Source: a virus
IMG/VR virus record: IMGVR_UViG_3300043436_000717
Coordinates: 1-25,333 of that record
Strand: one strand, 5' to 3'
DNA length: 25,333 bases
Both the position numbers and the translations under genes were made by a program. Shown here one piece after another: positions 9,772 to 12,171 of this stretch. Position 1 is the first letter of the stretch; every line of letters begins with the position of its first letter. The notes beneath the pieces are model-generated. The model saw only the letters and a list, made by a program, of their open reading frames with translations, was not told where the DNA came from and made no database searches.

Positions 9772-10132
9772 GTACGGCAATAAGAAAATTGAGTTAGATG
9801 GTGTCAAGTTTGATTCCAAGCTGGAATTATTCTGTTACCAACAATTTAAGAGTTTGGGGCTAGAATTCGACTTTCAAAGAACAATACTCTTGCAGGAAGG
9901 ATTTAGATTCAAAGGTAAGTGGATACGACCTATTACTATGATTGTAGACTTTGTACTTCATCACGATGGACAAAATATCTACATAGACACAAAAGGGTTC
10001 GCTACCGAGACATCTAAGCTGAAATACAAGATGCTAAAGTTTTATGTAAGAGAAGATTCTACTGCTGATGTGGTTTGGCTACACTCCCAAAAAGAAGTCA
10101 AAGAGTTTTTATTTAATTTATTAAAGTTATGA
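9740..10132 (+). CDS. DUF1064 family nuclease-like protein
   Basis: 130 residues matching the DUF1064 phage family: SKYGNKKIELDGVKFDSKLEL at the N-terminus, IVDFVLHHD (68-76), and YIDTKGFATETSKLKYKML. The arrangement E29 - D70 - D83-x-K85 is that of a PD-(D/E)XK-type nuclease core, and members are often suggested to process recombination or replication intermediates. The reaction has not been shown from sequence. It sits between the MazG-like gene and ssb, overlapping both, and thus belongs with the recombination set that includes the Rad52-like protein. Confidence 0.8.
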   Translation: MAKITQSKTSKYGNKKIELDGVKFDSKLELFCYQQFKSLGLEFDFQRTILLQEGFRFKGKWIRPITMIVDFVLHHDGQNIYIDTKGFATETSKLKYKMLKFYVREDSTADVVWLHSQKEVKEFLFNLLKL

Positions 10133-10545
10133 GTAGTGTAAACAAAGTAGTCCTACTGGGAAATGTAGGTGGAGTCGAAGTTAAAAGCTTCGAGAATGGT
10201 AAGAAGTTAGTTCAGTTGTCATTGGCAACGTCTGACGGTTACAAAAAGGGTGATAAGTGGGAAGAGAAAACAGAGTGGCATCGCTGCATCTTTGCTATCC
10301 CTGCCCTTGCTGAAAGAGCAGCTGGAATTCAAAAAGGTGATAAGATCTATGTTGAAGGAAGCATTAACACAAATTCTTGGACAACCAAAGATGGTGAGAA
10401 GAAAGAGATCAAAGAGATTTCTTGTACAATGTTTAAGACTTTTGTAAAAGCTAAGACAGAGCAAAAAGAATTCAATCAACCTAAGACAACCGTTACTGAA
10501 AGTAAGAGCGATTGGACTCAGGAGTCGGATGATATTCCTTTCTGA
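10129..10545 (+). CDS. ssb: Single-stranded DNA-binding protein
   Basis: 138 residues. The N-terminal about 105 residues are an OB-fold SSB: VNKVVLLGNVGGVEVK, LSLATSD, EKTEWHRCIFAIPALAERAA, GDKIYVEGSI and a C-terminal strand. A short Ser/Thr/Asp-rich linker ends in DDIPF, the acidic tip that recruits replication and repair partners. It should coat phage single strands and cooperate with the Rad52-like annealing protein. It starts in an ATGA overlap with the DUF1064 gene and is followed by the structured intergenic stretch. Confidence 0.95.
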   Translation: MSSVNKVVLLGNVGGVEVKSFENGKKLVQLSLATSDGYKKGDKWEEKTEWHRCIFAIPALAERAAGIQKGDKIYVEGSINTNSWTTKDGEKKEIKEISCTMFKTFVKAKTEQKEFNQPKTTVTESKSDWTQESDDIPF

Positions 10546-10555
10546 TGTAAAAAAA

Positions 10556-10780
10556 ATATGCCACTGACGAGTGGAACGTAGCCTGCCTAGCAATGGCCTG
10601 AGGTTCTCATCGTAGGGAGATAGGTTAGCCTTCCGAGGAAAAAGGCAAATGGTGAGGAAAACTGTTGGTTCAGTTAAACAGGAAGGCAGCTTACGGCATA
10701 AGACCATCCGAATAAGGTACTTCAAACGGAGTTCGCGATAATCCTACCGAGTGAGTTCGAATCTCACCCTCACTGCAAAT
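10556..10780 (+). ncRNA. Candidate structured RNA, G+C-rich
   Basis: The stretch 10561-10780 is 107 of 220 G+C by hand count, against 24 of the next 100 bases, and holds no convincing gene. Many helices can be drawn: CCACT/AGTGG (10561-10574); a long-range helix of 10606-10617 with 10742-10755 (about twelve pairs with two bulges); GCCTTCC/GGAAGGC (10628-10634 with 10681-10687); AACTG/CAGTT (10660-10664 with 10671-10675); CTTA/TAAG (10690-10693 with 10699-10702). The 3' end resembles a tRNA T-arm, GTGAG-TTCGAAT-CTCAC (10751-10767), followed by CCTCACT that can pair with GGTGAGG at 10651-10657. No full cloverleaf forms. A 30-residue basic frame (10649-10741) also exists. Class unknown; some helices exclude each other. 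Confidence 0.6.
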
Positions 10781-10793
10781 TGATTCAATATAA

Positions 10794-10810
10794 GTGGTAA
10801 AAATTGCCAC
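10794..10810 (+). other. Short hairpin after the structured RNA
   Basis: GTGGTAA-AAA-TTGCCAC forms a seven-pair stem (one G-U) with a three-base loop. It lies 19 bases beyond the tRNA-like end of the structured stretch. There is no T-run after it, so it is not a standard terminator; it may cap the 3' end of the RNA or be a protein site. Confidence 0.4.
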
Positions 10811-10826
10811 ATATGTAAGAACAAAA

Positions 10827-11736: not shown

Positions 11737-11941
11737 TGATGAGCAGGAGCTCAGAGATGCCATTGACGGATGGAAATGGAAACACGCAATTTTTATGTTT
11801 GATCAGAAGATGAGAGAAACAACAAAGCGTGGATTAATAGAGGGCGTAGAAGCCAATGATGATCAGGTAAAGAATGCTGAGTACTGGAGAAACCAACTCA
11901 GATACATTCTAAGTGATAACGGATTAGATATCGAATCATGA
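11714..11941 (+). CDS. Conserved small phage protein
   Basis: 75 residues: MKATLEFDDEQELRDAIDGWKW, then FDQKMRETTKRG and a C-terminal EYWRNQLRYIL. The start MKATLEF...E...A..G.K....FDQ.LR is a recurrent small protein in Bacteroidetes phages and integrated elements; function unknown. An ATGA overlap joins it to the HTH-like gene that follows. Confidence 0.7.
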   Translation: MKATLEFDDEQELRDAIDGWKWKHAIFMFDQKMRETTKRGLIEGVEANDDQVKNAEYWRNQLRYILSDNGLDIES

Positions 11942-12171
11942 CAGAATACGAATTAGAATTGAATTCTCAGGATCTAGGAGAGATCATTGAGATACTTAGG
12001 GTGCAACACTTCAGGATGCACGCTGAACCATTCGCTCAGAAGATCGGAATGAAAGAAAATGTTCTGCTATCTGTAGAAGAAGGTCGAGGACCACACGGAT
12101 TACTCGCCTTAAAGAAAATTAATGATACCTTCCACAATGTGAAGGTTACATTTAAGGTCCAAATTAATTAG
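11938..12171 (+). CDS. Probable XRE-type HTH protein
   Basis: 77 residues. Residues 31-65 (PFAQKIGMKENVLLSVEEGR, then LLALKKINDTF) follow the Cro/CI helix-turn-helix pattern, with the two helices and the 'E-x-G' turn in the usual places. An N-terminal EYELELNSQDLGEIIEILR segment precedes it. A DNA-binding regulator is likely, and the palindromes at 9091 and 10827-10879 are possible targets. It is the last + strand gene; its stop (12169-12171) overlaps the stop of the convergent minus strand gene by two bases. Confidence 0.65.
   Translation: MTEYELELNSQDLGEIIEILRVQHFRMHAEPFAQKIGMKENVLLSVEEGRGPHGLLALKKINDTFHNVKVTFKVQIN

What the first reader, a model, noticed from the sequence alone, without database searches (positions are those of the whole stretch)
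10556..10780. G+C-rich structured RNA candidate with a tRNA-like 3' end after ssb
A 220-base stretch of about 49% G+C in a neighbourhood near 24% holds no convincing gene but many long helices, including a long-range one closing 10606-10755 and a perfect T-arm-like hairpin (TTCGAAT loop) followed by an acceptor-like strand that matches GGTGAGG at 10651. A full cloverleaf fails, U8 is missing and no known class (tmRNA, RNase P RNA, group I intron) fits by eye. This could be a new phage RNA class or a tRNA-derived decoy.
Basis: partly seen in the sequence, partly recalled or inferred. Interest (0 to 1): 0.75.

Follow-up and report, generated by a model that had tools for sequence, protein, structure and literature searches.

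The report
Phage tRNA mimic without an anticodon
This stretch of an unnamed phage genome encodes a structured RNA whose ends look like a transfer RNA but which has no anticodon, and related phages carry many different versions of it in the same place, which suggests a job other than reading codons, perhaps fooling host defences that attack tRNAs.

Summary
(1) 10559-10646: an 88-nt structured leader found in 46 viral records (45 plus the window), with strong compensatory changes (22 distinct sequences). In 29 of 46 its last hairpin is followed by a T-run and a start codon; in 17 of 46 it runs straight into a tRNA or tRNA-like. (2) 10651-10774: a 124-nt tRNA-like: 7-bp acceptor, D-arm with GG, T-arm with TTCGAAT; the anticodon arm is replaced by a 66-nt hairpin. 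Four other phages carry it unchanged apart from its first base, although leaders are 73-96% identical and flanks unrelated. Relatives carry other tRNA-likes here with unrelated interiors; 17 of 18 tested have no canonical anticodon arm (the 18th match is judged spurious), both tRNA-Trp controls do. One relative swapped 6 of 7 acceptor pairs compensatorily. T4 species 1 RNA (rnaC, function unknown) shares the T-arm and an acceptor-like stem, so the kind is known, but this family and leader were not found in Rfam or in my paper searches. Function is inferred: an anti-defence tRNA decoy is my best guess, a stable RNA scaffold the main rival.

The parts
10559..10646 (+). Structured leader RNA (88 nt), directly after ssb
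   Evidence: 46 viral records hold it; alignment A2 of 22 distinct sequences, 99.3% of pair cells standard, 6 pairs with changes on both sides, 0/500 shuffles as high on cells paired or covariation
10561..10574 (+). Leader hairpin P0: CCACT-GACG-AGTGG
   Evidence: 4 of 5 pairs covary, loop GACG invariant in 22 of 22
10579..10627 (+). Leader P1: TAGCCT (10579-10584) with AGGTTA (10622-10627), closing a three-way junction
   Evidence: 97.7% of cells paired, no change on both sides
10586..10603 (+). Leader P2: CCT (10586-10588) with AGG (10601-10603), loop of variable length
   Evidence: third pair G-C in 17, U-A in 5 of 22
10605..10620 (+). Leader P3: TCTC/GAGA with conserved loop ATCGTAGG
   Evidence: one compensatory change, L083 UCUA/UAGA
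10628..10646 (+). Leader P4 hairpin GCCTT...AAGGC
   Evidence: followed by a T-run in 29 of 46 records (terminator-like), by a tRNA or tRNA-like in 17 of 46
10647..10650 (+). AAAT linker (ACAT or AT in relatives) before the tRNA-like 5' end
   Evidence: direct reading
10651..10774 (+). tRNA-like RNA without anticodon arm (class A, 124 nt)
   Evidence: 100% identical in L063, L071, L074, L083 and 1 difference (G1/A1) in the window, flanks about 50% identical
10651..10657 (+). Acceptor 5' strand GGTGAGG
   Evidence: pairs with 10768-10774; G1-U72 here, A1-U72 in the four relatives
10660..10675 (+). D-arm-like hairpin AACTG-TTGGTT-CAGTT, 2 nt after the acceptor strand
   Evidence: in MFE and centroid folds; GG in the loop; no covariation available
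10680..10745 (+). Long imperfect hairpin in place of the anticodon arm, loop ATCCGAATAA
   Evidence: MFE and centroid only; no covariation because the class is invariant
10751..10767 (+). T-arm GTGAG-TTCGAAT-CTCAC
   Evidence: direct reading; matches the 3' half of phage tRNA-Ser genes
10768..10774 (+). Acceptor 3' strand CCTCACT
   Evidence: direct reading
10775..10775 (+). Discriminator position G (A in some relatives); CCA not encoded
   Evidence: direct reading
10129..10545 (+). ssb gene upstream; the RNAs begin 13 bases after its stop
   Evidence: Pfam SSB 5.7e-20

Best explanation
The region encodes two linked non-coding RNAs, probably transcribed with ssb. Shown from sequence: a covarying leader RNA ends in a terminator-like hairpin, and a tRNA-like starts 4 nt later; it keeps the acceptor stem, D-arm and T-arm of a tRNA but has a long hairpin instead of an anticodon arm, so it should not decode. 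Inferred: host RNase P cuts at 10651 and the CCA enzyme finishes the 3' end, giving a stable RNA that host proteins recognise as a tRNA through its top half and elbow. Most likely use (inference): a counter-defence decoy or inhibitor of a host enzyme that attacks or reads tRNAs, with the swapped central arm setting which one; this fits its exchange with true tRNA-Trp genes and with other tRNA-likes in the same slot. My confidence is about 0.9 for the anatomy (two RNAs, tRNA-like without anticodon) and about 0.35 for the decoy role; the number given is for the whole statement.
For: Leader covariation 0/500 shuffles. tRNA-like conserved exactly from acceptor to acceptor in 5 phages with unrelated flanks. 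In L145 the class B interior sits on a different acceptor: 6 of 7 pairs compensatory. 17 of 18 tRNA-likes tested lack a 5-bp/7-nt anticodon arm with U33, both tRNA-Trp controls have it; the one positive overlaps the D-loop insert and is judged spurious. Rfam's tRNA model passes its cut-off on several of these (for example L024 46 bits, L104 44 bits, class D 38-39 bits), so they are tRNA-derived. The same slot holds a true tRNA-Trp in L003/L065, with a 96% identical leader and the same downstream sequence. L002, whose SSB and DnaB are 99% identical to the window's, carries two other tRNA-likes there: fast turnover, as in an arms race. Phage tRNAs do counter tRNA-cutting defences (PMC11555353, abstract and passages).
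Against: No expression, processing or defence data. The window's own element is not seen by the Rfam tRNA model (0 matches at E <= 1 in G000) or ARAGORN, and lacks U8. The acceptor and T-arm were what my scanner selected for, so their presence in all members is partly by construction; the unselected evidence is the exact conserved boundaries, the acceptor swap, the D-arms and the slot. Near-identity of class A may be recent transfer rather than selection. The long central arm has no covariation. A decoy need not conserve 124 nt exactly; a conserved interior hints at a specific partner. The host is unknown.
Confidence: 0.4

Rival explanations
1. A stable tRNA-scaffold RNA: the tRNA-like ends protect and process a variable insert that acts as a regulatory or protein-binding RNA, not as a decoy.
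For: Unrelated inserts on near-constant acceptor/T-arm scaffolds: acceptor AGTCAGG occurs with at least six interiors (L002, L024, L041, L072, L104, L145). Class A and B interiors are strongly conserved; class B has a palindromic hairpin loop that changes as a pair, CGGCCG to CAGCTG.
Against: No target was sought or found; no chaperone or partner gene is known to be linked.
Confidence: 0.25
2. Decaying tRNA genes: expansions of real phage tRNAs on the way to loss.
For: Some members look worn (62 and 68 nt forms in L056 and L041); a true tRNA-Trp sits in the same slot in relatives.
Against: Perfect acceptor and T-stems, compensatory acceptor swap, 124 nt conserved in five phages, repeated loss of only the anticodon arm.
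Confidence: 0.15
3. Intron-bearing tRNAs whose insert is removed to give a normal anticodon arm.
For: Inserts lie mostly where anticodon-loop introns lie; extended anticodon-type stems in L024, L104, L009.
Against: No Rfam group I or II intron (window only); inserts of roughly 20-100 nt are too short for known self-splicing introns (recalled); the D-loop also carries inserts (L071, L002, L024); no intron-free copy of the same gene was seen.
Confidence: 0.08
4. A minimal tmRNA-like RNA that tags stalled proteins.
For: tRNA-like ends around a long insert; a short frame starting with GCA can be read by eye.
Against: ARAGORN finds no tmRNA, Rfam none; the class B insert has indels and one copy carries a stop at the matching place (L069 GTAGGT against L062 GTATGT).
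Confidence: 0.03
5. The leader, not the tRNA-like, is the main function: an attenuator or small RNA whose terminator tail was replaced by tRNA cassettes.
For: 29 of 46 records have leader, T-run and start codon 23-49 nt downstream with no tRNA; L083 has class A exactly where L086 has the T-run, before the same gene.
Against: Does not explain conservation of the tRNA-like; downstream genes differ between records, which argues against one regulated function.
Confidence: 0.09

Closest known systems
Phage T4 species 1 RNA (rnaC, 139 nt), conserved in T4-like phages
   Same: Non-coding phage RNA in a tRNA cluster, with a T-arm (CCGGG-TTCGAAT-CCCGG), an acceptor-like closing stem and no anticodon arm recognised by ARAGORN; T-arm and stem keep pairing through changes in the diverged homologues I aligned. 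Function unknown (PMC3014915, PMC9697503, PMC12685909, passages).
   Different: No sequence similarity; the T4 acceptor-like stem pairs only 5 of 7 by eye; T4 has one conserved species (710 phage records match), here many unrelated inserts turn over in one slot behind a structured leader.
Phage tRNAs that counter tRNA-cutting defence (retron-Eco7, PrrC; PMC11555353)
   Same: Phage-encoded, tRNA-type gene, variable between close relatives; a true tRNA-Trp shares the slot.
   Different: Those stand in for an attacked tRNA, and changing the anticodon abolished protection (passages); these have none.
Theta (HDV-like) ribozymes next to phage tRNAs (PMC10879173, first part of the text read)
   Same: Structured RNA directly adjoining phage tRNAs.
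   Different: Theta ribozymes have their cleavage site at the tRNA 3' end and a nested double pseudoknot; the leader lies 5' and begins with a local covarying hairpin.
tmRNA
   Same: tRNA-like ends around an insert.
   Different: Not detected by ARAGORN or Rfam; no conserved tag frame.

Membership tests
tRNA (RF00005) | 7-bp acceptor and 5-bp T-arm with TTCRANY-type loop | tested here: met
tRNA (RF00005) | D-arm with GG in the loop, 2-nt linker | tested here: met
   10660-10675 in MFE and centroid; U8 is A
tRNA (RF00005) | 5-bp/7-nt anticodon arm with U33 | tested here: not met
   none in the window element
tRNA (RF00005) | Score over the family cut-off | tested here: not met
   no match at E <= 1 in the window record; ARAGORN 0 genes
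T4 species 1 RNA (rnaC) | tRNA-like 3' end with T-arm and closing stem, no anticodon arm | tested here: met
T4 species 1 RNA (rnaC) | Sequence homology to rnaC | tested here: not met
   no rnaC among the listed blastn hits of the region or of the element (one search listed 20 of 56 records)
T4 species 1 RNA (rnaC) | Accumulates as a stable small RNA | not testable with these tools
   needs RNA from infected cells
tmRNA | Recognised by ARAGORN or Rfam tmRNA models | tested here: not met
HDV-like theta ribozyme | 5' strand pairs downstream in a nested double pseudoknot, site at a tRNA 3' end | tested here: not met
   the leader's 5' strand pairs locally (P0, 4 of 5 pairs covary) and lies 5' of the tRNA-like; no dedicated motif search was run
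Group I or II intron | Match to intron models | tested here: not met
   (window only)

The most novel reading that the evidence does not exclude
A diversified family of anticodon-less tRNA mimics, made behind a conserved structured leader, that phages exchange as cassettes to disarm host enzymes recognising the tRNA acceptor or elbow, with T4 species 1 RNA as an unrecognised functional relative.
Probability: 0.3. Interest if true: 0.85.

Novelty: new variant of a known kind. Interest (0 to 1): 0.62.

Why it matters
T4 species 1 RNA is still listed as of unknown function (PMC3014915, PMC9697503, PMC12685909). Finding the same design, tRNA ends without an anticodon, diversified and swapped among unrelated phages gives a comparative handle on what such RNAs do and makes the anti-defence idea directly testable. 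The leader is a well-supported structured RNA that no Rfam 15 model reports in this window.

Tried and rejected
One fold for the whole region: rejected, the whole folds no better than shuffles (z 0.39) and the two halves evolve separately. Long-range helix 10606-10755: rejected, see observation check. Rfam hits at E 1-10 (DLEU2_2, plastid UTR and two others): chance, far under gathering scores. Coding: rejected, lengths not in steps of three; the 168-aa antisense frame 10219-10725 lies mostly over ssb. Hammerhead-like CUGACGA start of the leader: considered by eye only. Promoter or operator role of the leader: not tested.

Led nowhere: host. The leader's 18-mer gave 1 hit in genome contigs, a Syntrophobacterales MAG, judged a chance match because nothing around it resembles the leader. 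DnaB and SSB searches gave only distant phages; two Bacteroidota phages among the listed SSB hits and four Nonlabens phage records for a tail-region protein suggest a Bacteroidota host, weakly. More distant class A copies: a second 21-mer found the same 4 records. Papers: searches listed nothing describing this leader or a family of anticodon-less phage tRNA-likes; I read listings, not every paper, and subscription journals are mostly not held.

Rows dropped: L090 and L105 (2 of 46 hits) as chance matches; L104's leader is cut by the contig end and was left out of A2 (22 of 23 rows aligned); L001 is the window itself. Some contigs appear under several locus ids; A2 uses distinct sequences only. 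In one search the L023 tRNA-Arg-like entry was taken one base late. Searches also list low-complexity or coding hits of the scanner (for example in L046, L047, L049, L053-L055, L089) and nested starts, not counted as tRNA-likes. One tRNA-model hit, G014:56936-57007 (46.4 bits), was not examined.

Full report
What is there. The finding covers two adjacent RNA elements on the + strand, starting 13 bases after the ssb stop (SSB: Pfam 5.7e-20). The first, 10559-10646, is a leader; the second, 10651-10774, is a tRNA-like. No Rfam family reaches its gathering score in the window; ARAGORN finds no tRNA or tmRNA.

The leader. An exact 25-mer of it occurs in 22 IMG/VR contigs, an 18-mer in 46, of which 44 are the leader and 2 chance; L083 adds a variant. 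With the window that is 46 records. The 22 complete distinct sequences (A2) support a hairpin P0 with an invariant GACG loop, a three-way junction (P1, P2, P3) with an invariant ATCGTAGG loop, and a last hairpin P4. Pair counts: 99.3% of cells standard, 6 of 19 pairs with changes on both sides, none of 500 shuffles as good on cells paired or on covariation, and slid registers fall to 19-44% paired. P1 rests on no double change. RNAalifold finds P0-P3 unaided. After P4, 29 of 46 records have a T-run and an ATG 23-49 nt after the hairpin; 17 of 46 continue into a tRNA or tRNA-like (16 with a T-loop in reach, plus L076 cut by its contig end). So the leader looks like a self-terminating RNA or attenuator whose terminator tail is replaced by a tRNA-type gene in some phages.

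The tRNA-like in the window. Acceptor GGTGAGG/CCTCACT (7 pairs), AA linker, D-arm AACTG-TTGGTT-CAGTT, T-arm GTGAG-TTCGAAT-CTCAC, discriminator G. The unconstrained MFE and centroid folds agree on this and on a 66-nt imperfect hairpin (10680-10745) in place of the anticodon arm, although the energy is only modestly below shuffles (z -1.28). The T-arm and acceptor 3' half match phage tRNA-Ser genes (23 of 23 bases in one). Four other phages carry the same 124 nt with no difference among them and one from the window (base 1), while their leaders are 73-96% identical and 200 bases upstream and 150 downstream align at 45-57%. In L083 it lies exactly where L086 has the T-run, before the same gene. 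The unit that is kept or moved is thus the tRNA-like from first to last acceptor base, in these five always behind the leader.

The family. The stretch between ssb and a small conserved gene (window 11938-12171, no Pfam family) is a hot spot. A scanner for T-arm plus acceptor found about 18 kinds of tRNA-like, 62-154 nt long, mostly there, with few hits elsewhere in 2.37 Mb counted over both strands and overlapping loci. Many have a leucine-type D-arm (TGGCGGAATTGGTAGACGC; the type is recalled). Of 18 tested, 17 have no 5-bp stem with 7-nt loop and U33 at the right distance; the one positive overlaps a D-loop insert; both tRNA-Trp genes tested are positive. Rfam's tRNA model passes its cut-off in 14 of 33 records, on true tRNA-Trp and on several tRNA-likes up to 46 bits, but gives nothing for the window record. 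Class B (7 sequences) is the strongest structural case: L145 has the same interior on a different acceptor, so that 6 of 7 acceptor pairs change on both sides; this is one sequence of seven. Class D shows two paired changes in its central hairpin between two variants (CGGT...GCCG to TGGT...ACCA, read by eye). Several classes follow a small hairpin with a GAAAGA loop (L009, L024, L041, L074), much as class A follows P4.

Turnover. L002 has SSB and DnaB 99% identical to the window's and nearly the same sequence after the slot, but carries classes C and B there. L003/L065 has a 96% identical leader and the same downstream sequence but a true tRNA-Trp. Close relatives thus exchange tRNA-likes and real tRNAs in one slot.

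How it may work. Shown: the anatomy, the conserved boundaries, the missing anticodon arm, the exchange. Inferred: RNase P and the CCA enzyme make a stable RNA; it is seen by tRNA-binding proteins through its acceptor and elbow; it does not decode. Quick exchange with real phage tRNAs, which can protect against tRNA-cutting defences (PMC11555353, abstract and passages; PMC10264068, start of abstract only), makes a counter-defence decoy my first choice at about 0.35 for that role; a scaffold for a variable regulatory or binding domain comes next. Serine and leucine synthetases do not need the anticodon for charging in E. coli (recalled), so charging is possible in principle.

What is known. T4 species 1 RNA (rnaC) ends in CCGGG-TTCGAAT-CCCGG-CGTTTCG; in the four diverged homologues I aligned, out of 710 phage records with a match, the T-stem is CCTGG/CCAGG and the closing stem CGG/CCG instead of CGA/TCG, so both keep pairing (read by eye). 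T4 rnaD shows no such end. The papers seen call both RNAs of unknown function (PMC3014915, PMC9697503, PMC12685909, passages). So the kind exists; the present family differs by lack of homology, its leader, its many inserts and its turnover. I found no description of it.

Verdict. A real, unannotated pair of phage RNAs; a well-supported new structured leader; a tRNA-like of a known but unexplained kind in a new, diversified form. Function untested.

Noticed in passing
L009 4243-4258, L024 4976-4993, L041 11067-11082, L074 5702-5717; also L078: Small hairpins with a GAAAGA loop lie just before four tRNA-likes of different kinds; the same hairpin followed by a T-run stands in L078, paralleling P4 of the leader.
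   Followed up: partly
L062 782-912 and the other class B members: Hairpin loop with a self-complementary hexamer, CGGCCG or CAGCTG, changing as a pair; could mean a kissing dimer.
   Followed up: no
L008, L009, L010, L011 just after ssb: A different conserved, structured-looking element ending in ACCACCAAGCTAAAGTCGGGTGGT occupies the same slot, in L009 directly before tRNA-Trp.
   Followed up: no
window 10796-10813: GGTAAAAATTGCCACATA, once in the window, recurs near genes and leaders in many relatives; may be a phage promoter or operator.
   Followed up: no
window 11938-12171: 77-aa protein, no Pfam family, conserved at the far side of the hot spot; 39 loci found with it.
   Followed up: partly
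L145 690-818: Class B tRNA-like without the leader, between two genes of a different phage, with a different acceptor stem.
   Followed up: yes
L071, L002, L024 D-loops: D-loops of some tRNA-likes carry their own inserted hairpins.
   Followed up: no
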